A stretch of DNA of 19,886 nt from Paenibacillus sp. (GTDB taxonomy: Bacteria > Bacillota > Bacilli > Paenibacillales > Paenibacillaceae). Of this stretch, positions 1-18,037 are shown piece by piece. The first letter of the stretch is position 1. Every line of letters begins with the position of its first letter. A model generated the notes under the pieces. It saw only the letters and a program-made list of their open reading frames with translations. It was not told the DNA's origin and searched no databases. The stretch lies in the NCBI GenBank assembly GCA_029256665.1, contig JAQSXN010000004.1, positions 1-19,886 on the forward strand, given 5' to 3'. A program made the translations under genes and the position numbers.

Positions 1-1466
1 CCACCCATCTCGGATTGTCCGGCCAATATCGCGTTGCCCCGCGTCTCCCACTCGGCGAGCGCTGCTTTGGTCTCCATGGTGCCTTCGAGCACCTTCTGGA
101 ACAGCTCATAGCCGATCTGACGGGCTTCCCAGACACCCGGTTTTTCGCGGTAGATCTTTTCTTCGTTAACGGAGGATGGCGGCAGAGGCTTAAGCATTGT
201 GAACGCATCGATGTTGTAGTTCATGCCGCCAACCGGCTTCAAGAACTCCTTGCGCGCGACAAGCTCGTAATTGCTTCTCGATTTCAGCTTCGCCCATTCT
301 TTGCTGTTCGAGAATTTAATAAAGTCCCAAGCGCCATCCGCGTTCTGCGCCTTGTTATTGATCGCCATCAGCTGGCTCAAGTTAATATTGCCGCCGGAAT
401 CGACGTTGGTCGGGTGGGTAGGCACGGTTACGACATCCCAATCGACCATTTCAAAGTCCTTGATGCTCGCCGCATTGTCGCTAAACTTCTTCAGCTCGTT
501 GACATAATACGACTCGCCGATCATCATCGCGACTTTGCCTTGCGCGAACAGATCGCCGTAGAATGGATCAACGCCGCCGTCTGCCGCGACTTTTTCGTTC
601 AACTTCATAATGAATTCCTGATCCGGCACGATCTTCTCCTTGTACAGGCCGGCTACGGTGTCGAACACTTCCGCCCATTGATCGCTGTTCACGAGCATCT
701 TGTCGCCGTTGTCGTCCCAAGTCTTAAGCTGGAGGGCCGTGCTGTAGTTCTGCACGTCGCTGAAGCCGTCGGAGTTCCAACGGTTGAACGAGAAGCCGAA
801 CGTCCGGTCGATGCCTTCGCCGCTTGCCAGCTGACGGGCTTTCGCAAAGACGTCCGTCCAGCTCATTTTGTCGGTTGGAGGTTCGATATTCATGTCGGCG
901 AAAATCTTTTTGTTATAATAGAGCGCCGATGAAGTGAACGTAGGCGTAAGCGCGTAGATATTGTTGTCGCCTGCCGCCTTGATACCCTCGATGACCGTCG
1001 GCACGTAATCCGACAGATCGAATTTGTCCTGCGAGATCAGCGGATCAAGCGGCTTCAGCAAATTGTCCTGCGTGAATCTTCTCAGCAGATTGTAGTCGAT
1101 GACAACGACGTCTACCGGATTCTGGCCTTCCATCAGCTTCTTCATCTCTTCGTACGGATCAGGCTGATCCGTCGGCTTGCCCGGCTCCGAGGTTTGCGTG
1201 AAACGCTGATTGTCGTAGTTGACGGCGCCGACGATCTCGAATTCCACGTTCGGATATTGGAATTCGAACATATCGGTGTATTGCTGGCGGAAGTAGGGCT
1301 CGTTATCCGCTCCGCCGTACATAACGCCGATTCGAAGCACGCTCGTCTCCGCTTCGGATGGATCGTTGCCTCCCGAACACGCGGACAACATGCCGGCCGT
1401 GAGCGTAAGCGACATCCCAAGCATGGTCCATTTGGTTACTTTCGATTGACTTAGAACATTAATCAT
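1..1466 (-). CDS. extracellular solute-binding lipoprotein of an ABC transporter, family 1 type (3' end beyond window)
   Basis: Reading in from 1466 the frame stays open for 488 codons to the window edge, so the C-terminus is missing. The N-terminus is a lipoprotein signal peptide: charged stretch SQSKVTKW, hydrophobic core, and lipobox LSAC with the acylated Cys at residue 30. The mature part looks like a family 1 sugar/oligosaccharide-binding protein (segments such as ALYYNKKIFADMNIEPP and GKVAMMIGESYY are typical), so it should sit on the outer face of the membrane and capture a substrate. The substrate cannot be told from sequence. Two in-frame ATGs exist, at 1472 and 1466; AGGGGG lies 8 nt before the second, which I prefer. 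The start overlaps the end of the upstream ATPase gene by 8 nt, implying translational coupling to an export-type ABC operon, which is an odd partnership. No matching sugar permease is visible; it could lie past the edge. Confidence 0.9.
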   Translation of the reverse strand, partial: MINVLSQSKVTKWTMLGMSLTLTAGMLSACSGGNDPSEAETSVLRIGVMYGGADNEPYFRQQYTDMFEFQYPNVEFEIVGAVNYDNQRFTQTSEPGKPTDQPDPYEEMKKLMEGQNPVDVVVIDYNLLRRFTQDNLLKPLDPLISQDKFDLSDYVPTVIEGIKAAGDNNIYALTPTFTSSALYYNKKIFADMNIEPPTDKMSWTDVFAKARQLASGEGIDRTFGFSFNRWNSDGFSDVQNYSTALQLKTWDDNGDKMLVNSDQWAEVFDTVAGLYKEKIVPDQEFIMKLNEKVAADGGVDPFYGDLFAQGKVAMMIGESYYVNELKKFSDNAASIKDFEMVDWDVVTVPTHPTNVDSGGNINLSQLMAINNKAQNADGAWDFIKFSNSKEWAKLKSRSNYELVARKEFLKPVGGMNYNIDAFTMLKPLPPSSVNEEKIYREKPGVWEARQIGYELFQKVLEGTMETKAALAEWETRGNAILAGQSEMG

Positions 1467-2361
1467 TGCCATTACCCCCTAATAAATTTGGCGAAGTGAT
1501 GATGATGCGCTCCCCGTCGAATTCCATCGTCGCTTTGTCCTTGATGCCGAGCGCGGTCAAAAATTCCTTCGGTACCTGCAGACGTCCTACGCGGTCGACG
1601 ACGACGTATGCTTCGTGTACGCCCGTCAGACCTTTCATGGCGGGCTGCGACGCATCGCCTCCTCCTTCAAGTCCGATGTTCGGATTGCGTTTAATAAATT
1701 CGGTGCTCGTTAATCCGTCGCGAATGGCGACGACCCGGTCCACCTTGCTCGCAAGCGTCATGTCGTGGGTTACGATCACGATCGTAATGCCGATCTCGCG
1801 ATTGAGTCTTCGGAATATGCCCATGATCAGGTCCGAGGTAGTCGTATCGACGGAGCCGGTCGGCTCATCCGCAAGCAGCAGCTTGGGCCGGTTGGAGAGC
1901 GAGATCGCGATGGCAACGCGCTGTTGCTCTCCGCCCGAGAGCTGATGGAGCTTGTTGTGCATGCGTTCCTTCAGCCCCACCCACTCCAGAAGCTGCTTCG
2001 CGTAATCGCGATCGACCTTGCCGGACAACATCATCGGCATCTCGACGTTCTCCAGCGCCGTCAGGTATGGCAGCAGGTTCCGGGCATTGTTCTGCCAGAT
2101 AAAGCCTACCGTCTCCCTCTTGTACTGAACAAGCTCTTCGTCCGTAATTTTGAGCAAATCCCATGGTCCTACTTTCACTTGCCCCGCGGAAGGACGGTCG
2201 AGACCGCCCAGCGTGTTGAGCAGCGTCGACTTGCCGCTGCCGCTGTTGCCGATAATCGCCATCAGCTCGCCGTCTTCGACCGTCAGGTTAAGTCCTTGGA
2301 GCGCCACGACCTCAAGCTCATCCGTTTTGTAAATTTTCACTAATCCTTCGCAATGAATCAT
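1459..2361 (-). CDS. ABC transporter ATP-binding protein with C-terminal AbrB/SpoVT-like domain
   Basis: A 300-residue ATPase of the LolD/MacB/YknY class that would power the adjacent FtsX-type permease. Visible motifs: Walker A GNSGSGKS (about residues 36-43), Q-loop in FIWQN, signature LSGGEQQRVA (about 139-148), Walker B LLLADEPTG (about 160-168) and H-loop VTHD (about 198-201). The class normally ends near residue 220-235. Here a linker is followed at about 252-293 by VDRVGRLQVPKEFLTALGI and then E-x-DGERIIITSP, the pattern of an AbrB/SpoVT/MazE swapped-hairpin domain (compare VDELGRVVIPIELRRTLGI in AbrB). The domain may add a dimer contact, a regulatory site or DNA binding; this is inference. 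The start follows GGAGAGGAG in the last codons of the permease gene, with 6 nt between the permease stop and this ATG. The tail GGNGND is Gly/Asn-rich. Confidence 0.93.
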   Translation of the reverse strand: MIHCEGLVKIYKTDELEVVALQGLNLTVEDGELMAIIGNSGSGKSTLLNTLGGLDRPSAGQVKVGPWDLLKITDEELVQYKRETVGFIWQNNARNLLPYLTALENVEMPMMLSGKVDRDYAKQLLEWVGLKERMHNKLHQLSGGEQQRVAIAISLSNRPKLLLADEPTGSVDTTTSDLIMGIFRRLNREIGITIVIVTHDMTLASKVDRVVAIRDGLTSTEFIKRNPNIGLEGGGDASQPAMKGLTGVHEAYVVVDRVGRLQVPKEFLTALGIKDKATMEFDGERIIITSPNLLGGNGND

Positions 2362-2367
2362 GCGCCG

Positions 2368-5277
2368 TTAACGCTCCTCTCCCATCTTGACTGCCTGATG
2401 AACCCTTAATCTGCGAATATGCAGGAAGAGCAGCAGCGCGCCTACGATCATCATGAAACCGACGACGTAGAAGAGCTGATTCGTATCGCTTGCTTCGAAT
2501 ACGACGCGGAACGGCGGTACCGTCTCCGCGACATTGTCTGCCGTCTGCAAGAACTGGAGGAAGATAATGCTAACCGCCTTGCCGATCGCAACGCCCAAGC
2601 CGATCGCTAGCCCCGCGGTGAACAACTGCTCAAGCAGCAGCATGCCCGTAAGCTGCTTTCTGGAGAGACCCATTGCGCGCAGCACGCCGAATTGCACGAC
2701 CCGCCCCGACAAGTTGAAGAACCAGTAAAGAATGTATCCGGCAAGCGTAATGACGACGGATACGAGGAAACCGAGACTTAAGATGCCGAATACGCCGCCG
2801 CGGGTAGGATGCTTGGCTTGCGTGATCAGCTCGGTGCGAACGTCGTCGACCGAAGCCAGCTCGACGCCTTCCTTCTGCAGCTTCTCGACGATCGGCGCTA
2901 CAAGCGCGTCCGGCTCCATCTTCAGCCACACTTCGTACGGCATGATGGGAAGCTGATCGTAAATGTAATCGAGATTCGTAATGATAAATGGCGATTTGTC
3001 CGGATATTGACTTGGCCAATAAGGCAAGATGCCGAATACCGAGAACTCGATCATGCCGTCCGGGAAACCGACGGAGATCGTATCGCCCAGCTTCAGCTGG
3101 TATTTCTCCGCTACTCCGGTAGGGATAATTGCCGCGTGTTCGGCTAAGCCCAGATTCGCCAAATACTGGAACGGATGCACCGGATACAAATCGTCGCGGA
3201 ACCAGGCCACTTCTGAGAAATCTTTGTTGTCGATGCCGAGAATCGTTCCTTGGCCGATCGACTTGCCGGAGATGACGACGTTGCCCTTGGCCTTCAGCAC
3301 GCGGGCAGCCGCTTCGACGCCGTCTAGCGAACGGAAAATCTCGAAAGGCGGTTCGTTATACAAAATGCGCGTCGGTACGCCTCCGCCATTGCCCCCGCCT
3401 CCGTTTCCTCCTCCGCCATTGCCGCCTCCGCCGTTACCTCCACCGCCGTTGCCTCCACCGCCATTGCCGCCTCCACCGTTGCCTCCACCGCCGCTAGGCG
3501 GCGTAACTTCCGCCGTTCCGTCCCATACGGTCTGAATAATGACATCCGATCCGTATTTATATAGGGTGCGTTCCGTTGAGTTAAGGTCGATCGTGCGGGC
3601 GGCCGAAGCGTTGTACACGCCTAATCCGAGCGTAAGCACGAGCAATATCATAAGCGGATAATATCCTTTGGACGAACGCGACAGTTGCGTTAGCGTCAAG
3701 TAGAGCGGCACAGGGAGAAACTTGCGTCCCAGCCAATTAAACAGCTTGAGCAGCCATGGGAATAATCTAAGGAAAAACAATCCCAAAGCGAATATCGCCA
3801 GCGCCGGGACAAAGAACAGGAACGGCTGTACGTTAAGCTGATCCGTCGTCATGCCCGTCTGGAACGTCAGCATCTGGCGTTCATTGAACATATACCAGCC
3901 ATACCCTGCCGCTCCGAGCAGCAGCACGTCGAGGAACCAGCGCTGCCAGGCCGGCTTGCGGTCCGATCGCGCGAGCTCCTGTTTGTAGCTCACGATCGAC
4001 GAACGCGCATAGATGACCGCCGGAATGACGGTCGCCAGAATAGCTAGCAGCACGGCGGCTGCGCCTGCAATCATAGCCTCCGTGGAGAACCCTACCGGGA
4101 TCGACTTTCGATTGACGAACGATAAGAAGCCGTTGGCCGATCCGATGCTCTTGGCCATAAACCAACCGATGAACGGTCCCGTTCCCAACGCGATGGCTCC
4201 GAGCAGCAGGCTTTCTAACAGATAAATCCAAATGATCTGCCGCGTTCCCGCTCCGCGGCTGCGCAAAACGGCAATGTCGCTTCGCTGCTTATCGAGCGAC
4301 TGCCTGGCATTCATCGCGATGAAGTAGAACACCATCGCGATCATCGGGGCGGCAAGCGTAAAGAGCAGCGTTTGAAGCTGCAGGCTTTGCTTGCGGAACT
4401 CCGTGAGCGTCGACGCGAACGAAATTTCGACGCGCGTATCTTTCATCCGTTGGTAAAGCTCGATATTAAGACGTTCCAACGTTCTGCCGAGCGGCGAAAG
4501 TTGGCTCGTCTTCACCTCGGACAAGTCGAAAGCGTAATACCATCCGCCGTTATGCAGCGGAATGTGATGTTTCTCCATCAGCACCTTTTGGAAGGTCGCT
4601 TCGCTGACTTGCAGCGTGCCGAGCAACCCTTCAAGTCCCTGATACCAATAGGCATCTGTTGCATCGATAGGGTTAAACGCGCCGACGACCTTCACGCGAA
4701 GCGTCAGGTTAAGTCCGCCGTAGACCGGATATTCGAAGATGTCTCCGATATGGATATCGTTGCGGTACATCGCCTCCTCCATCATGACGGCTTCGATGAT
4801 ATCCCCGTTGCCGGCTGCTTCGTCGAACCATTTGCCTTGCGCGATCTCAGCGTGTTTGGCGAGTTCGGACATCGACATAAGCGACAATTGCCGGTTGCGT
4901 CCCGCGTCGACCTTGGAAGGATCTTCGGGCACGACGTCGGAGCTTCGGATGGAATACGTTTGTTGGTAGGTGTCATATGTAAAACCGATATTTGCCGGAA
5001 CGTTCTCCTTGATGTATCGTTCCAGCTCGCCAAGCGCCTTCATATCCGTACTCTCTCCAGGCGTTGCCTGGTATCTCATGAGCAGCGATCCCGCCGGCAA
5101 TCCCTCGCTTTTCTCTTGCAGCGACTGGGTAACGACGCGCTTCAGTGCTCCGTCGGCGTACATGGGGATGCTCGTGGCGAATGCAACCGCCATGATAAGT
5201 CCGGCGAGCGTGCTGAGCGTAAGCCATCTTGTATTCCACATTTTGCGGAATAAGAATCGGAACAGTGGAATACCCAT
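2368..5277 (-). CDS. FtsX/MacB-type ABC transporter permease, two-module, with Gly-Asn repeat linker
   Basis: A 969-residue membrane protein. About ten hydrophobic segments can be seen near residues 17-39, 305-325, 348-375, 400-423, 444-462, 484-512, 538-559, 827-853, 878-905 and 932-953. Two large extracytoplasmic regions (about 40-300 and 560-825) follow the first and seventh segments. Both halves carry the FtsX hallmark near a cytoplasmic loop (IAVLRSRGAGTRQI and FGVLRAMGLSRKQL), so it appears to be two FtsX modules in one chain, far longer than the roughly 400 residues of YknZ. Such permeases move lipids, peptides or drugs, or do mechanical work on the envelope, rather than forming an import channel. 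Residues 596-633 are seven GGGGN units plus GGG in the second ectodomain. The ATG lies 3 nt after the adaptor stop codon; the ribosome site is weak, suggesting coupled translation. Substrate unknown. Confidence 0.93.
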   Translation of the reverse strand: MGIPLFRFLFRKMWNTRWLTLSTLAGLIMAVAFATSIPMYADGALKRVVTQSLQEKSEGLPAGSLLMRYQATPGESTDMKALGELERYIKENVPANIGFTYDTYQQTYSIRSSDVVPEDPSKVDAGRNRQLSLMSMSELAKHAEIAQGKWFDEAAGNGDIIEAVMMEEAMYRNDIHIGDIFEYPVYGGLNLTLRVKVVGAFNPIDATDAYWYQGLEGLLGTLQVSEATFQKVLMEKHHIPLHNGGWYYAFDLSEVKTSQLSPLGRTLERLNIELYQRMKDTRVEISFASTLTEFRKQSLQLQTLLFTLAAPMIAMVFYFIAMNARQSLDKQRSDIAVLRSRGAGTRQIIWIYLLESLLLGAIALGTGPFIGWFMAKSIGSANGFLSFVNRKSIPVGFSTEAMIAGAAAVLLAILATVIPAVIYARSSIVSYKQELARSDRKPAWQRWFLDVLLLGAAGYGWYMFNERQMLTFQTGMTTDQLNVQPFLFFVPALAIFALGLFFLRLFPWLLKLFNWLGRKFLPVPLYLTLTQLSRSSKGYYPLMILLVLTLGLGVYNASAARTIDLNSTERTLYKYGSDVIIQTVWDGTAEVTPPSGGGGNGGGGNGGGGNGGGGNGGGGNGGGGNGGGGNGGGVPTRILYNEPPFEIFRSLDGVEAAARVLKAKGNVVISGKSIGQGTILGIDNKDFSEVAWFRDDLYPVHPFQYLANLGLAEHAAIIPTGVAEKYQLKLGDTISVGFPDGMIEFSVFGILPYWPSQYPDKSPFIITNLDYIYDQLPIMPYEVWLKMEPDALVAPIVEKLQKEGVELASVDDVRTELITQAKHPTRGGVFGILSLGFLVSVVITLAGYILYWFFNLSGRVVQFGVLRAMGLSRKQLTGMLLLEQLFTAGLAIGLGVAIGKAVSIIFLQFLQTADNVAETVPPFRVVFEASDTNQLFYVVGFMMIVGALLLFLHIRRLRVHQAVKMGEER
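3379..3492 (-). repeat. 15-bp-period tandem repeat encoding (GGGGN)7-GGG in the permease
   Basis: Seven consecutive 15-bp units read GGGGN on the minus strand, followed by GGG. The units differ at many third positions (GGC, GGT, GGA and GGG all occur; AAC and AAT alternate), so the protein repeat is conserved better than the DNA repeat. It lies in frame in the second extracytoplasmic region of the permease and is probably a flexible linker. Confidence 0.95.
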
Positions 5278-5280
5278 CGT

Positions 5281-6354
5281 TTATCGACCTACGACTTTCT
5301 GCCCCGGCTTCAATCCCTGCAAAATTTCGATATCCGTGGCGGTCTGCTGACCGACCTCGACATCCACCTCGCGTTTGCCTTCATCGTCAATCACTTGAAC
5401 ATAAGTGCGGGAACCGATATTGCGAAGCGCGGAAGGCGGGATGACGACGGCATTCTCCGTACGTTTGGTAATAATGTTGATCGCGATCGGCGTGCCTCGC
5501 TGAATGTCCGCCGGCAGTTCCGGCAAATCGACGATCATGAAGTCCTCGGGGCGTTCCGGCTTCGTCTCGCCTTGCGGCGGATTGCCGTTCCCGTTGCCGT
5601 CGCCTTCCGTCGTTTTCACGGGCATTTGCTTCACCGTGCCCTTAAAGTTGCCTGCGCTGCTTATCGTTACGACGGCCTCCATGCCGGGCGCGATTTTCTC
5701 AAGCTCCGTCTTGGTCAGCTTGGCCGCGGGCGTCATAAGTCCCGTGTCCGCCACGATCGCGACAGGCGCGTAGGCTTTGATCACGTCGCCCTTTTGGGCG
5801 CTAACCGACACGATCGTGCCCGCATATGGCGCTACGATCGTCGCTTTGGCGATCTCTTCTTCCATGTCGACGAGCTTCTGGCGTTTCTCTTCGAAGGCGA
5901 TTTGCTTCTCTTCGAATTCCAGCGGTTCCATCTCGTCGCGCATCCGAAGCGTCTCCTTCATCGCGTTTTCTTCCCGCTTGAACGCGAGCCGTTCCATCCG
6001 CAACGATTTCTGCAAGTCCTCGACGTCGAGCTCGCCGATGATGTCTCCGGCCTGCACTTTATCGCCGGTCTTTACGTAGAGCTCTTTGAGATGTTTGCCG
6101 TCTAGCGTAAAATACATCGTTTCTTCCTGCGTGGAAATGACTTTGCCGATGACTTGAACCTTCGTCTCCAGCGTCTTGGTCGTGACTTCGTACTCCGGTT
6201 TTTTCGAGATTTGAGGCGGCACGATATCCGGCAGCACCTCTTCTCCCTTTTCGTCGGGCAGCAGCGAACAGCCGCTTGCAAATACCAGCGACAAGCTCAT
6301 CGCGGCGATTACGGAAACTCTAGATAAATTTCCCGTCCACCATTTCATAGACAT
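5281..6354 (-). CDS. HlyD/RND-type membrane-fusion (periplasmic adaptor-like) lipoprotein
   Basis: A 357-residue adaptor of the YknX/MacA type that would link the ABC permease to the outside of the cell. The N-terminus has a hydrophobic stretch ending in FASGC (Cys 29), a plausible though non-classical lipobox, so it is probably lipid-anchored. A lipoyl/barrel-sandwich half precedes a short charged helical hairpin (about residues 111-168, rich in Glu, Lys and Arg), followed by the second half beginning ATIVAPYAGTIVSVSAQKGD. A beta-barrel region and a C-terminal domain (VVIPPSALRNIGSRTYVQV) follow. A Gly/Asn stretch GDGNGNGNPP lies near residue 252. The frame is open 30 nt further upstream, but GGAGG stands 9 nt before the ATG at 6354, so I use that start; it overlaps the upstream ATPase gene by 35 nt. 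It is followed after 3 nt by the permease gene. Confidence 0.92.
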   Translation of the reverse strand: MSMKWWTGNLSRVSVIAAMSLSLVFASGCSLLPDEKGEEVLPDIVPPQISKKPEYEVTTKTLETKVQVIGKVISTQEETMYFTLDGKHLKELYVKTGDKVQAGDIIGELDVEDLQKSLRMERLAFKREENAMKETLRMRDEMEPLEFEEKQIAFEEKRQKLVDMEEEIAKATIVAPYAGTIVSVSAQKGDVIKAYAPVAIVADTGLMTPAAKLTKTELEKIAPGMEAVVTISSAGNFKGTVKQMPVKTTEGDGNGNGNPPQGETKPERPEDFMIVDLPELPADIQRGTPIAINIITKRTENAVVIPPSALRNIGSRTYVQVIDDEGKREVDVEVGQQTATDIEILQGLKPGQKVVGR

Positions 6355-7117
6355 GGTCGGCAACCTCCAAAATCGTAGGATCATGTGTAGTCATGCATAT
6401 TGAGACGTTTTCTGTTGCGATAATAGTTTGGAATACCGCCATGATTTGCGCGGACATGCCCGTATCGAGCTCGGCTGTCGGCTCGTCGGCCAGCAGCAAT
6501 AGCGGTTTATGAGCGATCGCCTTCGCGATGGCGACGCGCTGCTGCTCTCCCCCCGACAACTCGAAAGGACGATGATGCATGCGCTTCTCCAGTCCGACGA
6601 GTTCCAAGCACTGCTCCACTCTACCCTTCCACTCCGATCGGGGCGTTCCAGCCATGCGCAGCGACAGCTCCACGTTCTCCCGCGCGGACAACAGCGGCAT
6701 CAACGCGAACGCTTGGAAAATAAAGCCCATCTCCTTGCGCCTGACATGCGTTCGCTCGTCGTCGCTCATTTGGCTGAACGGCAAACCGTGGAACACGATA
6801 TCCCCCTTGCTCGGCGTATCGAGTCCTCCCAGGCAATTAAGCAGAGTCGTCTTGCCCGAGCCGGATCGGCCCTTAAGCATGACGAGCTGATTGGGGTAGA
6901 CGGACATCTGTATCCCCTTAAGCACGTGCAGCGTATTACCGCCGACTTGAAACATGCGCTCCACTTGGTTCACGGTAAGCAAAGCGTCTGCGGTTACAGC
7001 CTCTTGCCGTTTCCCTTCATCCCAATCGGCGGTGCTATCAGGAGCATGCTCGATCAATTCTAGCTTCGTTATTTGCGGTTCCGTACCGGCATTCCCCTTC
7101 CCTATCTCTTTCTTCAT
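6320..7117 (-). CDS. ABC transporter ATP-binding protein (LolD/MacB/YknY class)
   Basis: A 265-residue ATPase with intact motifs: Walker A GRSGSGKT (about 81-88), Q-loop in FIFQAFALMP, signature LSGGEQQRVAIA (about 186-197), Walker B LLLADEPT (about 203-210) and H-loop TTHD (about 239-242). It resembles ATPases paired with HlyD-type adaptors and FtsX-type permeases. It opens the operon and its end overlaps the adaptor gene. The N-terminus has about 45 residues before the ABC domain (charged, no signal peptide), longer than usual, and no good ribosome binding site precedes the ATG at 7117. The start is therefore uncertain; a downstream GTG or TTG closer to LLTVNQVERMFQ is possible. With the second ATPase further on, the operon supplies two complete but different ATPases for one two-module permease, so a heterodimer is plausible but unproven. 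Confidence 0.9.
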   Translation of the reverse strand: MKKEIGKGNAGTEPQITKLELIEHAPDSTADWDEGKRQEAVTADALLTVNQVERMFQVGGNTLHVLKGIQMSVYPNQLVMLKGRSGSGKTTLLNCLGGLDTPSKGDIVFHGLPFSQMSDDERTHVRRKEMGFIFQAFALMPLLSARENVELSLRMAGTPRSEWKGRVEQCLELVGLEKRMHHRPFELSGGEQQRVAIAKAIAHKPLLLLADEPTAELDTGMSAQIMAVFQTIIATENVSICMTTHDPTILEVADHVYEMVDGKFI

Positions 7118-7250: not shown

Positions 7251-8981
7251 TTATTGTTTTACTTTGAATCGACCGACGGCCGCTCCCAGTTGATCGACGA
7301 TGGAATCGAGCGTGCGCGAAGCGTCCGCGATGCTATCCGTTAGCGCAAGCTGTTCTTCCGTCGCCGCAGCCACACTTTCCGTTTTCTCCAGACTTGCGGA
7401 TGCCGTCGCCGCCGATTGCTCCGAGGATGCGCTGACTTCTTCGGAGCTGGCGGACATTTGCTCCGTGATGGCCGAGCTTTCTTGGAGCTGCTCCGTCATC
7501 TGGTTGACGGCCGCGCTAATCGCGTTCAAACGGCGATTCAGCTCGGCAACGCGGTTGCCCCCGTCCTCTACTTCGACCAGTGTTTGGCGCATGGCGTCCG
7601 ATGCGCTTGCGATTTCGCCTCTCGTAACGTTTACGAGATCGTTTATCCCCTCCGCGGAAGCAAGAGAGCTTGCGGCAAGCTTGCGTATCTCTCCGGCGAC
7701 GACGGCAAACCCTTTGCCATGCTCGCCGGCCCGAGCCGCTTCGATGGAGGCATTAAGAGACAGAATGTTCGTTTGGTTAGAGAATGTCGTTATATTTTCG
7801 GCTATGGAGCCGATCTGGCCGGAACGTTTCTCGAGCGTTTCGATGATGGCGGAGAGCCGGTGGATAACATCGACCATCCCCCTCATTCTGTCTTCCAACC
7901 GTTCCAGCGCCTCCCGTCCTTCCTCTGCCTCGGACGATGTCGAGGAGGAATGATCCGCCAAGGTCGACGTATTCTCCGCGATTCGGCTTATGCCGACCGT
8001 CATCTCTTCGATGGCGCGCGAAGTCTCTTCCGCGCTGCGTGCCTGAATCTCGGAATTCTGCGTGACCTCCGCGATCTGGCTTGCCACATGCTCGGATGCC
8101 GTTGCGGATTCCGATGCCGCTTGCGATAGACGAGCGGATGAAGCTTTGACGTCGGAGGCATTCCGGACGACGCCGGAGATCAAGCCGTTCATTCTTTCGA
8201 TCATGTCGTCGACCGAATGAAGAATGCGGCCGAGCTCGTCTTTGCCGTACTTGGCGGCGCGAGGAGCCGTCAGATCGCCTTGGCTTACCTGATTCGTTTT
8301 TTCCAGCACCCTCCGGATCGTCGAAGTCATCGAACGCGTCATCAGAATCAACATCGCGATAAGCGAGACGGTGACGACGATGATTCCGACGAAAGTGAAT
8401 AGCTGCGAGGAATCCAAGCCGGATTCGATTTCCTCCATCTTCTCATCCGCAAAGACTTCGACGTTCTGTCCGATTTCGTCCACGCCCGTCCGTGCGGTCA
8501 GGAACAGCGAGTCGACTTCCGGATTGACGGCTAACGCCTTGCCGTCATCCGTCGCCGCGGAAGCCGCAGCAAACCATCCTTTATAATTATCGTCGAACGA
8601 ACTTAGCAAATCGCCGACTTTTTCGGCGGAATCTCCTTTGTCCAAATCGAGCAGTCCCGCAGTTTCCATTAACGCTGTCGCCTCGGTCACTCTCTCGATC
8701 GCTTGATCCTTGTTCGCGACCATGTCTTCGCGCATCGCTTTAAGCGCGTCTCCTTCCAATGCCCCCGATTCGATCAATAAATATGCGGCATTAGCTTGAT
8801 AGAGATCCCGGTCTGCGTTGAGCAGCAGTCGGCCGACTTGATTGGACGTTTCATGTATGGACGACTTCATTTCATCGAATATTTTTCGTTCCTCGCTAAG
8901 CAGCAATAAACCCGTCATCGTGTAGAAAAACAACGGTAGTGCCGCCAAAATCACCAATTTAAATCCGACTGATATTTTCAA
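7251..8981 (-). CDS. methyl-accepting chemotaxis protein
   Basis: A 576-residue transmembrane receptor that would feed CheA/CheW signalling to the flagellar motor. Layout: first membrane segment about 8-28, a mostly helical extracellular sensor of about 165 residues like a four-helix-bundle (4HB_MCP) domain, second membrane segment about 195-216, HAMP linker about 217-270, then a long cytoplasmic coiled coil. The conserved signalling tip contains [20 protein letters not shown] (about 394-430). Gln/Glu-rich helices flank it as in methylation regions, and there is no NWETF-type CheR tether at the end. The ligand is not predictable. The start is TTG at 8981, preceded by AAAGGGGAG 9 nt upstream; no in-frame ATG fits as well. 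It is a monocistronic unit with a SigD-type promoter upstream and a terminator downstream. Confidence 0.95.
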
Positions 8982-9198: not shown

Positions 9199-9852
9199 TT
9201 AGCTGCCGAACGATTGCGGGTCCTCGCGCCATGCTTGCAGCGTTGCCACGTCGGCTTCCGCCACCAGACTCTGGCGAACCGCCTCGTCGATTAGCGCCGA
9301 ATAGTTCGACAACGTCTCCAACCGGAAACCTTCGTCGGCAAACGATTTTGTTGCAGAATCGAACTGGTACGTGAAAATCGCTAGCACCGCCAACACTTCG
9401 CCGCCAACCTCGCGTACGGCTTGAGCCGCTTTCAGCGAACTGCCGCCCGTGGAAATCAAATCTTCGATGACTACGACCTTCTGCCCCGCTGAGATACGGC
9501 CTTCGATTTGATTCTGTTTGCCGTGACCTTTCGCCTTGTCGCGGATGTAAGCCATCGGCAAGTTCAGCTTCTGCGATACCCATGCGGCATGCGGGATCCC
9601 CGCCGTAGACGTGCCGGCGATAATTTCGGCATCCGGGTAACGCTCGCGAATGATGGTGGCGAATCCTTCTGCGATCATGTCGCGAATGTCGGGATATCCC
9701 ATCGTCAACCGGTTATCGCAATAGATGGGCGACTTTAGCCCGGAAGTCCACGTGAATGGATCGTTGGGGCGCAGCGCGACGGCTTGAATGTCCAACAGGC
9801 TCTTTGCGATCGTCTCCGGCAAATTCGATAATGTCAGCTTAGTCAACTGCAA
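9199..9852 (-). CDS. pyrE: orotate phosphoribosyltransferase
   Basis: Converts orotate plus PRPP to orotidine 5'-phosphate, the fifth step of UMP synthesis, in the cytoplasm. The PRPP-binding signature VVVIEDLISTGGS is at about residues 125-137, and YIRDKAKGHGKQNQIEG matches the catalytic loop of PyrE. At 217 residues it is of normal family size. The frame begins at TTG 9852; GAGGAG precedes it by only 4 nt and precedes a second in-frame TTG (9846) by 10 nt, so the exact start is open by two residues. No ATG is available. The start lies inside the end of pyrF (14-nt overlap), so the two are translationally coupled. It is the last gene of the pyr operon. Confidence 0.96.
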   Translation of the reverse strand: MQLTKLTLSNLPETIAKSLLDIQAVALRPNDPFTWTSGLKSPIYCDNRLTMGYPDIRDMIAEGFATIIRERYPDAEIIAGTSTAGIPHAAWVSQKLNLPMAYIRDKAKGHGKQNQIEGRISAGQKVVVIEDLISTGGSSLKAAQAVREVGGEVLAVLAIFTYQFDSATKSFADEGFRLETLSNYSALIDEAVRQSLVAEADVATLQAWREDPQSFGS

Positions 9853-10573
9853 TCAGCTCCTCGATAATAGATTCAAGCGCGGCGCGCGGCTCCGGCGCTG
9901 CCGTAATCGGCCTTCCGATCACCATGAAGTCCGTGCCTTGACGGAGCGCTTCGCCTGGCGTCATGATGCGCGACTGGTCGCCAATATCGGCGCCTTTCGG
10001 CCGAATGCCCGGCGTGACCGTATAGAAATCGCTACCGCATGCCGACTTGATCGCCGCAACCTCGGAAGGCGAAGCGACGACGCCTTGCAAGCCTGCGGCT
10101 TTCGCTAGATCGGCGTACCGGATTACCGCCTCTTCGACCGATCCCGCTATCCCGATCTCTTCGTTCATGACGATCGCGCTCGTGCTCGTCAACTGGGTGA
10201 CCGCTATGACCGCCGGAGGAGACGTACCGGATGGAAGCGCCGCATGTACGCCTTCCATCGCCGCTTCCATCATCGCCTTGCCGCCGCCCGCATGCACGTT
10301 GAACATGTCAACGCCCAGCTTCGCGACGCTGTTCGCGCCGCCTTTGACGGTGTTCGGAATATCATGCATTTTCACATCCAGAAACACATAATATCCCCGC
10401 TTCTTAAGGCTCTCCACAAAGGATGGGCCTGCAGCGTAGAACAGCTGCAAACCCACCTTCATATAACAGGGAATGCCCTTCAGCTCCTCGATCAGTCTTT
10501 CGGCCGCGGCCGCTTCCGGATAATCCAGAGCGACCATAATGCGTTTCGCGGCCTCTTCGCGCGATAGCTTCAC
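9839..10573 (-). CDS. pyrF: orotidine 5'-phosphate decarboxylase
   Basis: Decarboxylates OMP to UMP, the last step of de novo pyrimidine synthesis. The 244-residue protein shows the catalytic D-x-K-x-x-D signature as LDVKMHDIPN (about residues 63-72), the substrate site VTPGIRPKGAD, and the C-terminal VIGRPIT phosphate-binding motif. The start is GTG at 10573 with AGGGGG 8 nt upstream; an ATG nearer the ribosome site is out of frame. It begins 20 nt after carB and overlaps pyrE by 14 nt. In Bacillus subtilis pyrK and pyrD lie between carB and pyrF; here nothing does. Confidence 0.97.
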   Translation of the reverse strand: MKLSREEAAKRIMVALDYPEAAAAERLIEELKGIPCYMKVGLQLFYAAGPSFVESLKKRGYYVFLDVKMHDIPNTVKGGANSVAKLGVDMFNVHAGGGKAMMEAAMEGVHAALPSGTSPPAVIAVTQLTSTSAIVMNEEIGIAGSVEEAVIRYADLAKAAGLQGVVASPSEVAAIKSACGSDFYTVTPGIRPKGADIGDQSRIMTPGEALRQGTDFMVIGRPITAAPEPRAALESIIEELIAVD

Positions 10574-10593
10574 TTGCCATTCCCCCTATTCAT

Positions 10594-13500
10594 TTATTTG
10601 CTCGACTTGCTCAGCACCGGCATGGCATGGGAGGAGAAGTTGATCGTCTCCATCATGCGCAGCAAGGCGCGGACCGTATCCAGCGAAGTCATGCAGACGA
10701 CGCCGTTCTCGACCGCTTCGCGTCGAATGCGGAAGCCGTCGCGCTCAGGCGTTTTGCCTTTCGTCAGCGTATTGACCACGAACTGCGCCTTGCCTTCGCG
10801 CACCATGTCGAGAATGTTCGGCGTGCCTTCGCTCAGCTTGTTGACGCGCTGCACGTACAGGCCAGCCGCCTCCAACGCATCGGCCGTGCCGCCCGTCGCC
10901 ATTATTTTGTAACCGATTAGATTAAAGCCGCGAAGCAGCTCCACCGCTTCTTCTTTATCCTTATCAGCCACGGTCGCGACGATCGTGCCCGATGTCGGGA
11001 TCTTCATGCCGGCGCCGATGAGACCTTTGTACAGGGCCTTGGCATACTGCACGTCGCGGCCCATGACTTCGCCCGTCGACTTCATCTCCGGCGTCAGCGT
11101 AGGATCGACGCGGCGCAGCTTCGCGAAGGAGAAGACCGGCACTTTGACGGAGACGTATTCGTCTTCCGGCCACAGACCGTCCACATAACCTTGCGATGCA
11201 AGCGTCGTGCCGAGAATCGCCTTGGTCGCCAGATTCGCCATCGGCAGGTTCGTGACTTTGCTGAGGAACGGAACCGTGCGGGACGAACGCGGGTTCACCT
11301 CGATCACGTACACTTTGTCGTTATGGATGACGTATTGGATGTTGACGAGACCGATGACTTCGAACTCCTTGGCGATCTTGATCGTGATGTCGACAATTTG
11401 GTTCTTGATGTCGTCGGACAGCGACTGCGGCGGATAAACCGCGATGGAGTCGCCGGAGTGAACGCCGGCGCGCTCGACATGCTCCATGATTCCCGGGATC
11501 AGAACCGTCTGGCCGTCGCAGATCGCGTCGACCTCGGCTTCCTTGCCCATCATGTAGCGGTCGATCAGCACGGGATGCTCCGGATTGATCTTAACGGCTA
11601 CTTCCATGTAGCTTAGCAGCTCTTCATCGGAATACACGATTTCCATTGCCCGTCCGCCCAAGACGTACGATGGACGAACCAACACCGGATAACCGAGCTT
11701 TTGCGCCGTAACGACCGCTTCATCGACCGAGGTCACCGTGCTGCCGTCCGGCTGCGCGATGTTCAGCTTGCGAAGCAGCGCTTCGAATTTCTTGCGGTCT
11801 TCGGCTGCGTCGATGCTCTCGAGGCTCGAGCCAAGAATGCGCACGCCTGCCTTAACCAGCGGAGCGGCCAGATTGATCGCCGTTTGTCCGCCAAATTGCA
11901 CGATAACGCCGATCGGATTTTCTTGCTCGATGACGTTCATCACGTCCTCGAAGAACAGCGGTTCGAAGTAGAGGCGATCGGACGTGCTGAAGTCCGTCGA
12001 TACCGTCTCCGGATTGTTGTTGATGATTACGGCCTCGTAGCCCGCTTTCTGAATCGCCCACACCGCGTGAACCGTGGAGTAGTCGAACTCGATGCCTTGA
12101 CCGATCCGGATCGGACCGGAGCCGAGCACGAGCACCTTCTGCTTCGTCGTTTCCGTTACTTCGTTCTCCACCTCGTACGTGGAGTAGTAGTAAGGAGTCG
12201 TTGCCTCGAATTCGGCCGCGCAAGTGTCAACCATCTTGTAGACCGGCTTCAGGCCGTTCTGCAGACGGAACGCGCGCACCTCCGCTTCCGTCGTGTGACT
12301 TCCGTTCGGGAACCCTTCCTTGCGAATTTCGGCGATGGAACGGTCGGAGAAGCCTTTGCGCTTCGCCTCGTACAGAGTGCCGGCCGTCAGCGTCGCTTCT
12401 TTGCGCAGACGGTCTTCGAAAGCGACGATGGAAGCGATTTTGTCGAGGAACCACCAGTCGATTTTCGTGATGTCCTGAATCTCTTGCAGCGTGAAGCCGC
12501 GGCGGAACGCTTCCGCTACGAGGAACATGCGCTCGTCGTCCGGCTTCTCCAATCGGTTTCTCAGCACCGATTCTTCCAGCGAGCCGGCTTCCTTGAGGTG
12601 CAGGCGATGAACGCCGACCTCAAGCGAACGTACGGCTTTATGGATGGATTCTTCGAAGGTGCGGCCGATGGCCATGACTTCTCCCGTTGCTTTCATCTGC
12701 GTGCCGAGCTTGCGGTTGGCGTTAACGAACTTGTCGAACGGCCAACGAGGAATCTTGGATACGATATAGTCCAGCGTCGGCTCGAAGCAAGCGTACGTCT
12801 GGCCCGTAACCGGGTTAACCAGCTCATCCAGCGTATAGCCTACCGCGATTTTGGCGGCCATCTTCGCGATCGGATAACCTGTCGCTTTGGATGCCAGCGC
12901 GGAAGAGCGGCTTACCCGCGGATTAACTTCGATGACGTAGTATTGATAGCTGTGCGGATCAAGGGCGAATTGCACGTTGCAGCCGCCTTCGATGTTAAGG
13001 GCGCGAATGATCTTAAGCGACGCGGAACGCAGCATTTGGTACTCGCGGTCGGACAGCGTCTGCGATGGCGCCACGACGATGCTGTCGCCGGTATGAACGC
13101 CGACCGGGTCGAAATTCTCCATGTTGCACACGACGATGCAGTTATCGTTCGCGTCGCGCATTACTTCGTATTCGACTTCCTTCATGCCAGCGATCGACTT
13201 CTCGATCAGGCACTGGTTGATCGGGCTGTAGCGAATGCCGGATGCCACGATTTCCCGCAGCTCTTCCTCGTTCGCGCAGATGCCGCCGCCCGTGCCGCCA
13301 AGCGTGTAGGCAGGTCGAACGATGATGGGATAACCGATCGTGTTCGCGAAGTCGACGGCTTCTTCGACCGTCGTCACGATCTCGCTCTCGGGAACCGGCT
13401 GCTCCAGCTCGCGCATCAGGTCGCGGAACAGGTCGCGGTCTTCCGCTTTTTCGATGGCGATCAGCTGGGTGCCGAGCAGTTTCACGTTCTCGCGCTCCAG

Positions 13501-13821
13501 CACGCCGGCACGCGCCAGCTCTACGGCCATGTTGAGGCCCGTTTGGCCCCCAAGCGTCGGCAGCAAGCCGTCAGGACGCTCTTGGCGAATGATCTGGGAG
13601 ACAAACTCCAGCGTGATCGGTTCGATGTAGACCTTGTCGGCCATGTTCGTATCCGTCATGATCGTAGCCGGGTTGCTGTTGATCAAGACAACCTCGTAGC
13701 CCTCTTCCTTCAAAGCCTGGCAAGCCTGAGTGCCGGCGTAGTCGAACTCCGCCGCTTGTCCGATGACGATCGGGCCGGACCCGATTACGAGAATTTTTTT
13801 CAGTTGATTATTTCTGGGCAT
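10594..13821 (-). CDS. carB: carbamoyl-phosphate synthase, large subunit
   Basis: Makes carbamoyl phosphate from bicarbonate, two ATP and ammonia channelled from the small subunit. At 1075 residues it has the full family architecture: two homologous ATP-grasp halves (each opening with a dinucleotide-like motif, [17 protein letters not shown] near the N-terminus and [17 protein letters not shown] near the middle), an oligomerization region between them, and a C-terminal MGS-like allosteric domain ([18 protein letters not shown], then [10 protein letters not shown]) that usually binds UMP and other effectors. The frame opens at TTG 13827, but AAGGAG stands 9 nt before the ATG at 13821, which I prefer. 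It overlaps carA by 14 nt, as expected for coupled subunits. Confidence 0.97.
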
Positions 13822-14953
13822 ATTCAAGCTCTCCTTTCAACGTCTCCGACAAGACGGCCTGACGCGGTTTTTGCGGGTTGTTTTTTTTGTGCTCGCGGAT
13901 CATCTCAAGGAACTCGTCGAACAGATAGCTGGAATCAAACGGACCTGGCGCGGCCTCCGGATGATATTGCACGGAGAATGCCGGATGGACGTTATGCTTC
14001 AGTCCTTCGATCGTTTTGTCGTTATTGTTGATGTGCGTAACCGTCAATTGCGTGCCGTGCACCGTATGGTCGAGCACGGTGTAGCCGTGGTTCTGCGATG
14101 TAATGTAGCAGCGGTTCGTGGCCAGCTCCTTGACCGGATGGTTGCCGCCGCGATGGCCGAACTTCAGCTTGCCCGTGTCGGCGCCGCATGCCAGCGCGAA
14201 CAGCTGGTGTCCGAGACAGATGCCGAAGATTGGGTATTCGCCGAGCAGCTCGGAAATCATTTTCACCGCATGGGGTACGTCTTTCGGATCCCCAGGGCCG
14301 TTGGACAGCTGAATGCCGTCCGGCGCCAGGCGGCGAATCTCGTCAGCGGTCGTGTCGTGTGGCACGACTACGACGTCGCAGCCGCGCGACGTCAGTTCGC
14401 GCAGGATTCCGCTTTTGGCTCCGAAGTCGACAAGGACGATACGTTCGCCGTTGCCCGGGCTCGAGAAAATATTTTTAGTCGAAGTGCGGGCGACTTGATC
14501 GGTCAAGAGCTTGGATGCGCCAAGGCGTTCCGTCAGCTCTTCGATGCGTTCGTTGCCCGTCGTGATGAGGCCTCTCATCGTGCCGAAGTGGCGAAGCTTG
14601 CGCGTCAGCATTCGCGTATCGATGTCGCTGATGCCCGGGATGCCGTATTCTTTGAGCAGCTGGCCAAGCGAATATTGAGCGCGCCAGTTGCTCGGCACCG
14701 GCTCGTGACGTCTTACGACAAAGCCGTGAATGTGCGGACGAAGCGCCTCGAAGTCGTCTCTCGTAATGCCGTAGTTGCCGATGAGCGGATAGGTCATCGT
14801 TACGATTTGACCGCAGTAGGAGGGATCGGAAAGCACCTCTTGGTAACCCGTAATCCCGGTATTAAACACGACCTCGCCCGTCATTTGCGCTTCCGCGCCG
14901 AAGGACAGACCGGTGAACAACGTTCCGTCTTCCAACAATAATCTAGCTTGCAT
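13808..14953 (-). CDS. carA: carbamoyl-phosphate synthase, small (glutaminase) subunit
   Basis: Class I glutamine amidotransferase subunit that releases ammonia from glutamine for CarB. The 381-residue protein has the N-terminal CPSase small-subunit domain ([20 protein letters not shown]), then the glutaminase domain with nucleophile Cys 246 in [15 protein letters not shown] and the catalytic His-Glu in [10 protein letters not shown]. The frame can be extended to a GTG at 14962, but that codon overlaps the GAGGAG ribosome site, which is 8 nt before the ATG at 14953. It follows a 228-nt gap after pyrC that holds an inverted-repeat element, the only sizeable gap inside the operon. Confidence 0.97.
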
Positions 14954-14984
14954 CCGTATCACTCCTCAGCTGTTAGTTAAGGTT

Positions 14985-15150
14985 GTTCAAAAAGTCCGCT
15001 TCCCATCACGAAGTATGCCATGAAGCATATTCGACATCGAATATTGAATTCAGGCGAACCTTCCGTTGCTCACATAGCGCTGCTATGCTCCGCTACTCAG
15101 TTTCTACCTTCTTTCAATCTTCTCGGAGCTGATAACCGAACTTTTTGAAC
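14985..15150. repeat. 166-bp element with terminal inverted repeats (MITE-like or intergenic repeat)
   Basis: The ends are perfect 11-bp inverted repeats, GTTCAAAAAGT at 14985-14995 and ACTTTTTGAAC at 15140-15150. Inside are two further perfect dyads: ATATTCGA-CA-TCGAATAT (15027-15044) and CATAGC-GCT-GCTATG (15073-15087). TTAA occurs just outside both ends. No transposase is encoded. Its placement inside an otherwise tightly packed operon suggests insertion. Whether it is repeated elsewhere in the genome cannot be seen here. It shows no PyrR-site consensus and no T-tract terminator. Confidence 0.65.
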
Positions 15151-15155
15151 TTCAT
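15114..15155 (-). CDS. possible 13-residue small ORF at the edge of the inverted-repeat element
   Basis: ATG at 15155 is preceded by AGAGGG with a 7-nt spacer and opens MKFKKFGYQLRED before a TGA stop. The start lies outside the terminal repeat and most of the frame inside it. It could be a leader peptide, a relic, or chance. Nothing identifies a function. Confidence 0.2.
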   Translation of the reverse strand: MKFKKFGYQLRED

Positions 15156-15181
15156 TTAAATACCCTCTATATCGATAAAAG

Positions 15182-16468: not shown

Positions 16469-16535
16469 TCTATATTCACCCTCCGATGGATAGTCCGTTT
16501 ATGCCGCTCATCCGTTATGGCGCGACTGCCGATCC

Positions 16536-17438
16536 TTAGCTAAGCGCCCGCTCCACGACCGCCATTCGCACCGGCACGCCGTTTTCCATCTGCGGGAAAA
16601 TTCTCGATTGCGGGTGTTCCACAAGCTCGTCGTCGATTTCCACGTTTCGGTTGACCGGAGCCGGGTGCATGATGATCGCGTGGGACTTTAAGCGCGCGGC
16701 GCGCTCGGTCGTCAAGCCGAATTGTTCGCGATAGGATTCCGCGGAGCTCAGCATGCCGCTTTCGTGGCGTTCCAGCTGCACGCGCAGCATCATGACGACA
16801 TCGGCCTGGGTCGCTTCGTCGATCGAGACGTAAGGCGCGTCCAACTCGGAGGCCTTCATGTTATCCGGCGCGCAGAAGCTGACTTTCGCCCCCAGCTTGC
16901 GGAGTGCGTACAGATTCGACCTTGCGACGCGGCTGTGCAGAATATCTCCGATGATGGAGACGTTCAGCCCATGCAGGCTATTGCCAAAATGTTTGCGCAT
17001 GGTGTACAGGTCTAATAAGGCCTGCGTTGGATGCTCGTTGTTGCCGTCGCCAGCGTTAATTAGCGGCACATTGATTTTCTCGGAGAGCTCCGCGAGCACG
17101 CCGTTCGGCTTGAGGCGAATAATGCCTACGTCGATGCCCATCGATTCCAGCGTGCGGACCGTATCGTAGATCGATTCGCCCTTTTGGACGCTTGAGGCGG
17201 CAGCCGAGAAGTTGATCACTTCCGCGCCCAGCCGCTTCTCCGCTACTTCGAACGAGAATCTCGTGCGGGTACTGTTCTCGAAGAACATGTTGGCCGCGAA
17301 TTTGCCCTGCATCATCGTATGCACTTTGGTTGGGTGATTCTCCCAATAAGCCGCTCTTTCCAAGATCGTTTCGATTTCTTCCTTGTCCAGGTCTTTCAGT
17401 CCGAGCATGCTGCGCCCTCTTAATTGCGTAATCGTCAT
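16536..17438 (-). CDS. pyrB: aspartate carbamoyltransferase, catalytic chain
   Basis: Condenses carbamoyl phosphate and aspartate, the first committed step. The 300-residue protein shows the carbamoyl-phosphate loop FFENSTRTRFSFEVAEKRLG (about residues 49-68), HPTQALLDLYT in the middle and IMHPAPVNRNVEI near the end, all family hallmarks. The open frame runs 186 nt further upstream through pyrR, but that stretch is low-quality coding and no family member has it. The ATG at 17438 follows GAGGGGG and begins MTITQLRGRSML, which fits the family start. It lies 5 nt after the pyrR stop. No pyrI regulatory chain is seen, as expected for Gram-positives. Confidence 0.97.
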   Translation of the reverse strand: MTITQLRGRSMLGLKDLDKEEIETILERAAYWENHPTKVHTMMQGKFAANMFFENSTRTRFSFEVAEKRLGAEVINFSAAASSVQKGESIYDTVRTLESMGIDVGIIRLKPNGVLAELSEKINVPLINAGDGNNEHPTQALLDLYTMRKHFGNSLHGLNVSIIGDILHSRVARSNLYALRKLGAKVSFCAPDNMKASELDAPYVSIDEATQADVVMMLRVQLERHESGMLSSAESYREQFGLTTERAARLKSHAIIMHPAPVNRNVEIDDELVEHPQSRIFPQMENGVPVRMAVVERALS

Positions 17439-17443
17439 GCCGC

Positions 17444-18037
<594 letters not shown>

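What the first reader, a model, noticed from the sequence alone, without database searches (positions are those of the whole stretch)
1459..2361. ABC ATPase fused to an AbrB/SpoVT-like swapped-hairpin domain
Seen: after a complete ATPase with all motifs, about 40 C-terminal residues read VDRVGRLQVPKEFLTALGI...DGERIIITSP, lining up with the AbrB pattern VDxxGRxxxPxExxxxLGI...ExIII. Known: AbrB-like domains are usually free-standing DNA-binding transition regulators or antitoxins and form intertwined dimers; ABC ATPases work as dimers. Inference: the domain could hold the ATPase pair together, sense state, or allow the transporter ATPase to bind DNA or another AbrB-family protein. I know of no described role for such a fusion in MacB/Ykn-type transporters.
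Basis: partly seen in the sequence, partly recalled or inferred. Interest (0 to 1): 0.72.

Follow-up and report, generated by a model that had tools for sequence, protein, structure and literature searches.

The report
Transporter ATPase carrying AbrB half-domain
One of the two motor proteins of a MacB-like bacterial membrane transporter carries half of an AbrB-type fold that has lost the residues AbrB uses to bind DNA, so it probably joins motor proteins to each other rather than switching genes.

Summary
The minus-strand gene 1459-2361 (Paenibacillus, by its relatives) encodes a complete ABC ATPase (ATPB), a variable linker and a conserved 45-residue AbrB/MraZ-family half-domain. The window's own tail scores below Pfam's cut-off; four relatives pass it narrowly, and a tail profile ranks AbrB/Abh first in the PDB. 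The tail is under purifying selection; the linker much less.

ATPB is the second ATPase of a conserved operon: ATPA, adaptor, double FtsX permease, ATPB and usually a solute-binding lipoprotein. ATPA has no such tail. In 56 of 242 listed relatives (the four with organism names are Chloroflexota) the ATPases are fused as ATPB-AbrB-ATPA; three others are ATPA-ATPB-AbrB. A and B trees mirror each other. They most likely form a heterodimer with one AbrB half per transporter. A swapped hairpin needs two halves, so the tail probably pairs with ATPB of a second transporter, or with another AbrB-family protein.

DNA binding in the AbrB manner is unlikely: at three AbrB arginine positions 0, 21 and 19 of 259 distinct tails carry Lys/Arg, never two together; 11 free AbrB/SpoVT domains have 11, 11 and 10. 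MazE-like domains also lack them. The pairing is inferred: AlphaFold did not settle it. No paper on the fusion turned up.

The parts
1459..2361 (-). ATPB: ABC ATPase with C-terminal AbrB-family half-domain (whole gene, 300 aa)
1696..2361 (-). ATPase domain of ATPB, residues 1-222, all motifs intact
1621..1695 (-). variable linker, residues 223-247
   Evidence: mean identity 0.45, pN/pS 0.476
1486..1620 (-). AbrB/MraZ-family half-domain, residues 248-292
2368..5277 (-). PERM: 969-aa permease with two FtsX stretches and a MacB_PCD match; about 10 hydrophobic segments and two large segments between them
3378..3493 (.). 15-nt tandem repeat encoding a GGGGN-type linker inside PERM
5281..6384 (-). 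MFP: MacA/HlyD-like adaptor with a lipobox-like N-terminus (lipobox read by eye)
6320..7117 (-). ATPA: second ABC ATPase of the operon, no AbrB tail, motifs intact
3..1472 (-). SBP_bac_1 solute-binding lipoprotein, overlaps the 3' end of ATPB by 14 nt; runs off the window

Best explanation
ATPB is the B subunit of an obligate pair of different ATPases (ATPA and ATPB) that drive a MacB-like (type VII) envelope system made of a double FtsX permease, a lipoprotein adaptor and often a solute-binding lipoprotein. Its tail is one AbrB-family half, repurposed from DNA binding to protein contact. ATPA and ATPB form the nucleotide-binding heterodimer under one permease, leaving one unpaired AbrB half per transporter. 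Two such halves from two transporters interleave as a swapped-hairpin dimer, held on flexible linkers, which tethers transporters in pairs and may tie their ATP cycles together. Shown: domain identity, conservation, loss of the AbrB DNA-binding arginines, the operon, and the A+B pairing by fusion and co-divergence. Inferred: the NBD heterodimer, the swapped hairpin, and its partner being another ATPB.
For: AbrB membership. Purifying selection on the tail, much weaker on the linker. Columns D10, G13, R14, Q16 and P18 are kept in 258-259 of 259 distinct tails, while the AbrB R8, R23 and R24 positions carry Lys/Arg in 0, 21 and 19 of 259 and never two together, against 11, 11 and 10 of 11 free AbrB/SpoVT domains with the DxLGR motif; strand 1 (columns 6-9) is hydrophobic in nearly every tail. 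Of 242 listed relatives, 181 are ATPB-AbrB, 56 ATPB-AbrB-ATPA, 3 ATPA-ATPB-AbrB and 2 show no tail; the P0125 and P0126 fusions lie apart from the P0131-type fusions in the tree. A and B distances correlate, r 0.89 over 94 systems, 0 of 999 permutations as high. In 102 operon loci (8980 ORFs) the tail profile hits 102 ORFs, all ATPases; a profile of free AbrB domains, which finds 32 of 32 control loci, adds at E<=0.01 only 3 ATPase tails and two short matches in PERM, so no plausible second half was seen beside ATPB. The fused model matches two-NBD single chains of M. tuberculosis OppD/DppD over its length, TM 0.61-0.65 against about 0.39 for one NBD.
Against: No complex was modelled. AlphaFold of the window protein is poor (mean pLDDT 60.7; most of the tail below 50), and the fused protein has pTM 0.53, so the NBD-NBD arrangement is not settled; the OppD/DppD matches have rmsd 7-10, and P-glycoprotein rows reach similar TM at rmsd above 20. 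The co-divergence contains shared species history. Ten other free AbrB-family domains (MazE-like and others) carry Lys/Arg at the three positions in only 0, 1 and 3 cases, so the loss argues against AbrB-type DNA binding only. The free-AbrB profile finds just 3 of 102 tails at E<=0.01, so a differently diverged second half could be missed. An ATPB homodimer in one transporter is not excluded. L147 has the ATPase pair without an FtsX permease nearby.
Confidence: 0.45

Rival explanations
1. Intra-transporter clamp: two ATPB subunits serve one permease and their tails dimerise below it, as MalK, MetN or MlaF C-terminal parts do; ATPA acts in an alternative or additional complex.
For: Dimeric C-terminal regulatory domains and the MlaF 'handshake' are known ways to hold NBDs together (PMC7367683, passages; MalK recalled). 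Bce-type systems use two copies of one ATPase on one ten-helix permease (PMC11466899 and PMC7828314, passages).
Against: ATPA is present in 80 of 80 close operons and in 20 of 22 distant loci, the other 2 (L120, L140) ending at a contig end; the two ATPases are fused 1:1 in 59 of 242 relatives; different Q-loop segments suggest contacts with different permease halves (inference).
Confidence: 0.2
2. Regulator trap: the AbrB half pairs with a free AbrB-family regulator and links transporter state to gene expression, as MalK does with MalT (recalled).
For: PF04014 matches over the cut-off exist in all 30 genomes searched, the window's own included; D, GR and P of the AbrB core are kept.
Against: No free AbrB-family gene was found in 102 operon loci with a profile that finds 32 of 32 control loci. 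The tail has its own invariant Gln (259 of 259) that none of 21 free AbrB-family domains has, which fits self-pairing better.
Confidence: 0.15
3. DNA-binding autoregulator: ATPB binds its own promoter through the tail.
For: The family is mainly DNA-binding (recalled); one source names relative P0191 as a lipoprotein-export ATPase and bifunctional DNA-binding regulator. The R15 equivalent is kept in 259 of 259. Ten other free AbrB-family domains lack the three arginines too (0, 1 and 3 of 10); MazE-like ones are held to bind DNA (recalled).
Against: R8, R23 and R24 equivalents are lost; mean net charge is about -1.1 over tail columns 3-45 against +2.4 over the slightly longer fragments of 11 free AbrB/SpoVT domains. 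Mutation of Arg23 and Arg24 abolishes AbrB DNA binding (PMC9598496, passage).
Confidence: 0.1
4. The half folds alone or packs on its own ATPase as a structural or ligand-sensing cap, without any partner.
For: The half keeps His, Arg and Gln nearly invariant, as a binding site might; the fused model gives it moderate confidence (57-74) as a single copy.
Against: AbrB halves do not make a closed barrel alone (recalled); the linker is long and variable.
Confidence: 0.1

Closest known systems
MacAB / LolCDE / YknXYZ type VII ABC systems
   Same: LolD/MacB-like ATPases, FtsX permease fold, MacA-like adaptor
   Different: Two different ATPases, one carrying an AbrB half; two FtsX stretches in one 969-aa chain; solute-binding lipoprotein in the operon
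BceAB-type exporters
   Same: One long single-chain permease; PMC11466899 (passages) describes ten helices in one polypeptide
   Different: Bce uses two copies of one ATPase and one extracellular domain; here two ATPases and two large inter-helix segments (hydropathy only)
AbrB/SpoVT/MraZ swapped-hairpin family
   Same: Sequence profile; D..GR...P core; half-domain length
   Different: Fused to an ATPase, AbrB DNA-binding arginines lost, invariant Gln at the AbrB Val17 position
MlaF C-terminal 'handshake'
   Same: C-terminal extension of an NBD that joins NBDs (PMC7367683, passages)
   Different: MlaF uses an extended peptide, not a folded half-domain, and forms a homodimer
M. tuberculosis OppD/DppD
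   Same: Two NBDs in one chain, like the ATPB-AbrB-ATPA fusions
   Different: Peptide-import systems by their names (recalled); no AbrB half is known to me there

Membership tests
AbrB/SpoVT (PF04014) domain family | Profile match over the curated cut-off | tested here: inconclusive
   Window tail 17.4 bits against 24.7, not over, and not listed by the family search of the own genome; four of six relatives rescanned are over it, narrowly (25.0-25.2). Membership rests on these plus the PDB profile hits and hhalign
AbrB/SpoVT (PF04014) domain family | beta-beta-alpha-beta-beta half fold | tested here: inconclusive
   Predicted strands and helix in that order in the window protein at pLDDT mostly under 50; beta-alpha-beta-beta at 57-74 in P0131, second strand not assigned
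AbrB/SpoVT (PF04014) domain family | Swapped-hairpin dimer | not testable with these tools
   No multimer prediction
DNA-binding AbrB-type regulator | DNA-contact arginines (R8, R23, R24; numbering recalled, R23/R24 in PMC9598496) | tested here: not met
   0, 21 and 19 of 259 distinct tails carry Lys/Arg there; none carries two or more
Type VII (MacB/LolCDE) ABC system | LolD/MacB-like ATPase with intact motifs | tested here: met
Type VII (MacB/LolCDE) ABC system | FtsX-fold permease and, for MacAB, a MacA-like adaptor | tested here: met
   FtsX in two stretches and MacB_PCD; TIGR01730 adaptor over its cut-off
Type VII (MacB/LolCDE) ABC system | Two copies of one ATPase per permease pair (as in MacB, LolD) | tested here: inconclusive
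   Two different ATPase genes in 80 of 80 close operons, fused in 59 of 242 relatives; stoichiometry not measured

The most novel reading that the evidence does not exclude
A widespread type VII ABC system (Bacillota, Chloroflexota) in which a transcription-factor fold, stripped of its DNA-binding residues, is a structural coupler that locks two complete heterodimeric transporters into a pair through an interleaved barrel beneath the membrane, making their ATP cycles interdependent.
Probability: 0.3. Interest if true: 0.78.

Novelty: new variant of a known kind. Interest (0 to 1): 0.58.

Why it matters
It would be a new type of C-terminal domain for an ABC ATPase, a case of a DNA-binding fold turned into a protein coupler, and a marker (D..GRLQ.P on an ATPase tail) for a whole family of two-ATPase, MacB-like envelope systems that the sources mostly name simply 'ABC transporter ATP-binding protein'. 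If the tail pairs two transporters, it makes inter-transporter coupling directly testable.

Tried and rejected
Single-sequence family scans alone would have left the AbrB call below the curated threshold. The tail profile also hits signal recognition particle protein over about 25 columns and an adenylate cyclase at E 0.12; set aside. Structure: AlphaFold of the window protein (A4, 46 rows) is poor, and its structure matches cover the ATPase. The fused P0131 (A6, 56 rows) has confident NBDs but pTM 0.53. The 50 rows shown list no AbrB chain for either model, but one domain fills those lists, so this says nothing. Row G311 is a free AbrB (L137); rows G779 (149-aa frame) and G884 (columns 1-25 only) are not taken as fusions and were not followed. 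The other 45 genomes were not all checked one by one for the ATPase. A short match to the free-AbrB profile in PERM of L056 (26 residues, E 0.004) and L045 (18 residues, E 0.0065) recurs weakly in other PERMs at the same place, residues about 675-750, in the large segment before the last three hydrophobic segments; it is read as a short look-alike motif, not a second half, because it covers about half of the profile or less and should lie outside the membrane (inferred from the FtsX topology).

The clade test used 10 distant ABC outgroups and no LolD/MacB, so it does not show that A and B are each other's sisters; its 32 systems were hand-picked from 161, and the 94 are distinct systems of a chosen subset. 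A1's 24 tails and the 22 distant loci were hand-picked; of 20 fetched AbrB-family stretches 19 were aligned (L193 left out), with L001 and L003 but not L002. Relatives were found with full-length or tail queries, so 'all have the tail' is partly ascertainment; the rows that one search lists (a capped list, full-length query) all reach query residue 286 or further, read by eye.

Papers: six searches aimed at such a fusion found none; some searches returned zero papers, one toxin-antitoxin review, one search showed 12 of 70. Searches were on other points. Only open-licence PMC texts are held. Seen as passages: PMC9598496, PMC11466899, PMC7828314, PMC7367683; all others as search listings with abstract starts only.

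Full report
What is there. By its relatives the window lies in a Paenibacillus genome (best match P. agaridevorans, 94% over the protein). The gene named in the finding is on the minus strand, 1459-2361. It encodes a complete ABC ATPase (ABC_tran E 1.8e-32; motifs located), then a 25-residue linker, then the 45-residue tail at residues 248-292 (window 1486-1620).

Is the tail AbrB? The window's tail alone reaches only 17.4 bits against a PF04014 cut-off of 24.7, and a PF04014 search of the own genome lists three other places, not this one. With 24 diverse tails (A1) the answer is clear: 17 of 24 hit PF04014 and 23 of 24 MraZ at E<=1 when scanned singly, and 9 of 24 hit TIGR01439 AbrB, best 1.1e-6. 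The profile's top four PDB rows are AbrB and Abh chains at E 0.0011-0.0018. hhalign against 21 free AbrB-family domains gives probability 95.3. Four of six relatives rescanned are over the Pfam cut-off, narrowly (25.0-25.2 bits); the same four carry PF04014 in the precomputed annotation, and one source's own name for P0191 already combines 'lipoprotein export system ATPase subunit' with a DNA-binding regulator. So automated annotation has noticed single cases.

Is it functional? Across 81 genes (the window and 80 loci, the best 80 of 413 found), mean pairwise identity is 0.90 in the ATPase, 0.45 in the linker, 0.81 in the tail; pN/pS over 1241 close pairs is 0.075, 0.476 and 0.106 (synonymous sites are saturated, so the ratios are rough).

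The operon. On the minus strand, in order of transcription: ATPA (7117-6320), MFP (6384-5281), PERM (5277-2368), ATPB (2361-1459), and a solute-binding lipoprotein (from 1472 off the left end; SBP_bac_1 E 5.8e-22). The genes overlap or lie within a few bases of each other. Of 80 genome loci, 78 have ATPA-MFP-PERM-ATPB in that order; L004 has PERM in two ORFs and L069 lacks an MFP hit. The binding lipoprotein follows ATPB in 77 of 80: 74 within -60 to 400 nt, and L061, L063, L078 as longer overlapping ORFs; L060 and L076 lack it and L069 ends. Of 22 more distant loci (L114-L123, L140-L151), 21 have PERM in the same gene run and 20 have ATPA (in L142 only a fragment at the contig edge), the two without it ending at a contig end. 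L148 has the order PERM-ATPA-ATPB. L147 has ATPA and ATPB overlapping but no FtsX permease; beside them lie a MalK-type ATPase and a solute-binding/CBM35 protein. A binding-lipoprotein relative lies just upstream of ATPA in L115-L119 and L121 (a piece in L114), downstream of ATPB in L122, L150 and L151, and was not found by phmmer in L120 (contig end), L123 and L140-L149.

Spread. With the tail profile, 14 of 398 genomes drawn from the phylum have a match, one of which (G311) is a free AbrB, and 47 of 398 from the class, of which G779 and G884 look like non-fusions and the rest were not all checked singly. The window's genome has three such ATPases (C369, C87, C154). Of the 56 ATPB-AbrB-ATPA proteins, four bear an organism name: Ardenticatenales, Anaerolineales, Promineifilaceae and Chloroflexia, all Chloroflexota; the others are unnamed.

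The pairing of the ATPases. Of 242 proteins listed in three searches (the best 120 of 8000 scored and, and 4), 181 are ATPB-AbrB, 56 are ATPB-AbrB-ATPA, 3 are ATPA-ATPB-AbrB, and 2 (P0184, P0186) show two ATPases without a recognisable tail (their middles look out of frame and were not touched). In a tree of 32 systems plus 10 outgroups, all A domains and all B domains fall on opposite sides of a branch with support 98/95, the two halves have similar branching, and P0125 and P0126 fall with L147 and L148 of Bacillota, away from the P0131-type fusions. This points to at least two independent fusions in opposite orders. Distances of A and B correlate at 0.89 in 94 systems, part of which is species history. 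Gene fusion in both orders is strong evidence that A and B act side by side; the natural place is the NBD dimer under a permease that itself contains both halves (two FtsX stretches). The predicted fused chain aligns over its length with two-NBD chains of M. tuberculosis OppD/DppD at TM 0.61-0.65, but rmsd is 7-10 and pTM 0.53, and P-glycoprotein rows reach similar TM at rmsd above 20, so this is weak.

What follows for the tail. One transporter then has one AbrB half. A swapped-hairpin AbrB barrel takes two halves (recalled from the AbrB, MazE and MraZ structures). In 102 operon loci with 8980 ORFs the tail profile hits 102 ORFs, every one an ATPase; a profile of free AbrB domains finds 32 of 32 control loci but in the operon loci, at E<=0.01, only 3 ATPase tails and two short matches in the permease (see Tried and rejected). 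Since that second profile finds only 3 of the 102 tails, a half diverged in another way could be missed. The likely partner is a second ATPB, belonging to a second transporter. The surface evidence agrees with protein contact and not AbrB-type DNA binding: in 259 distinct tails the equivalents of AbrB R8, R23 and R24 hold Lys/Arg in 0, 21 and 19 cases and never two at once, while 11 free AbrB/SpoVT domains hold them in 11, 11 and 10. The control cuts both ways: the 10 other free AbrB-family domains (MazE-like and others) hold them in 0, 1 and 3. The tail has the GR motif of the AbrB/SpoVT type, not the MazE type. R8 and R23 are replaced by hydrophobic residues in most tails. Arg23 and Arg24 are needed for AbrB DNA binding (PMC9598496, passage). 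Residues of the fold core stay (D, G, R, P), and a Gln at the AbrB Val17 position is invariant (259 of 259), as is His at column 3 where present (213 of 215). The mean net charge is about -1.1 against +2.4.

Comparison with the known. The system works like MacAB or LolCDE in its parts, yet has two different ATPases. Bce-type systems have one long permease with two copies of one ATPase (PMC11466899 and PMC7828314, passages). MlaF shows that a C-terminal extension that joins NBDs can be needed for assembly and be replaced by a zipper (PMC7367683, passages); that is the nearest functional parallel and suggests the test. I found no paper on an AbrB-ATPase fusion in six searches of open-licence texts.

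Limits. Structure prediction of the window protein failed to fold the tail confidently; no complexes could be modelled; relatives were found by queries that include the tail; the 259 tails lean to Paenibacillaceae and to the fused kind. Substrate and phenotype are unknown; a solute-binding lipoprotein of sugar-binding type (best PDB hit a putative sugar-binding protein) is a hint at a glycan-related role, no more.

Noticed in passing
window 3-1472 (-): A solute-binding lipoprotein of the sugar type overlaps the end of the AbrB-ATPase gene; a binding protein in an exporter-like FtsX operon is unusual. In paralogous operons it sits before ATPA instead.
   Followed up: partly
window 3378-3493: Tandem repeat encoding a GGGGN-type linker in a large inter-helix segment of the permease.
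   Followed up: no
L147:2554-13757: ATPA and ATPB pair without FtsX permease, beside a MalK-type ATPase, a 1004-aa solute-binding/CBM35 protein and two further ORFs that resemble sugar permeases by eye (no Pfam hit for the one tested).
   Followed up: partly
L045 and L083, downstream of ATPB: Two tandem binding-lipoprotein-like genes after the AbrB-ATPase instead of one.
   Followed up: no
L123:5854-7986 (-): A 710-aa protein with a signal-like start takes the place of the binding lipoprotein and overlaps the ATPB end.
   Followed up: no
L056:3106-5997, permease residues 709-734, and the same place in other permeases: Short motif in the permease's large second segment resembles part of the AbrB half (IP..hA.....k.GD); weak and partial.
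   Followed up: partly
window 9199-18013 (-): Looks like a pyrimidine biosynthesis cluster (pyrR, pyrB, pyrC, carA, carB, pyrF, pyrE; names recalled from the translations, no search made), on the same strand as the transporter operon and separated from it by a chemoreceptor-like gene 7251-8981.
   Followed up: no
P0184, P0186: Two long two-ATPase proteins whose middle region does not show the AbrB tail and reads like another frame; left as they are.
   Followed up: no
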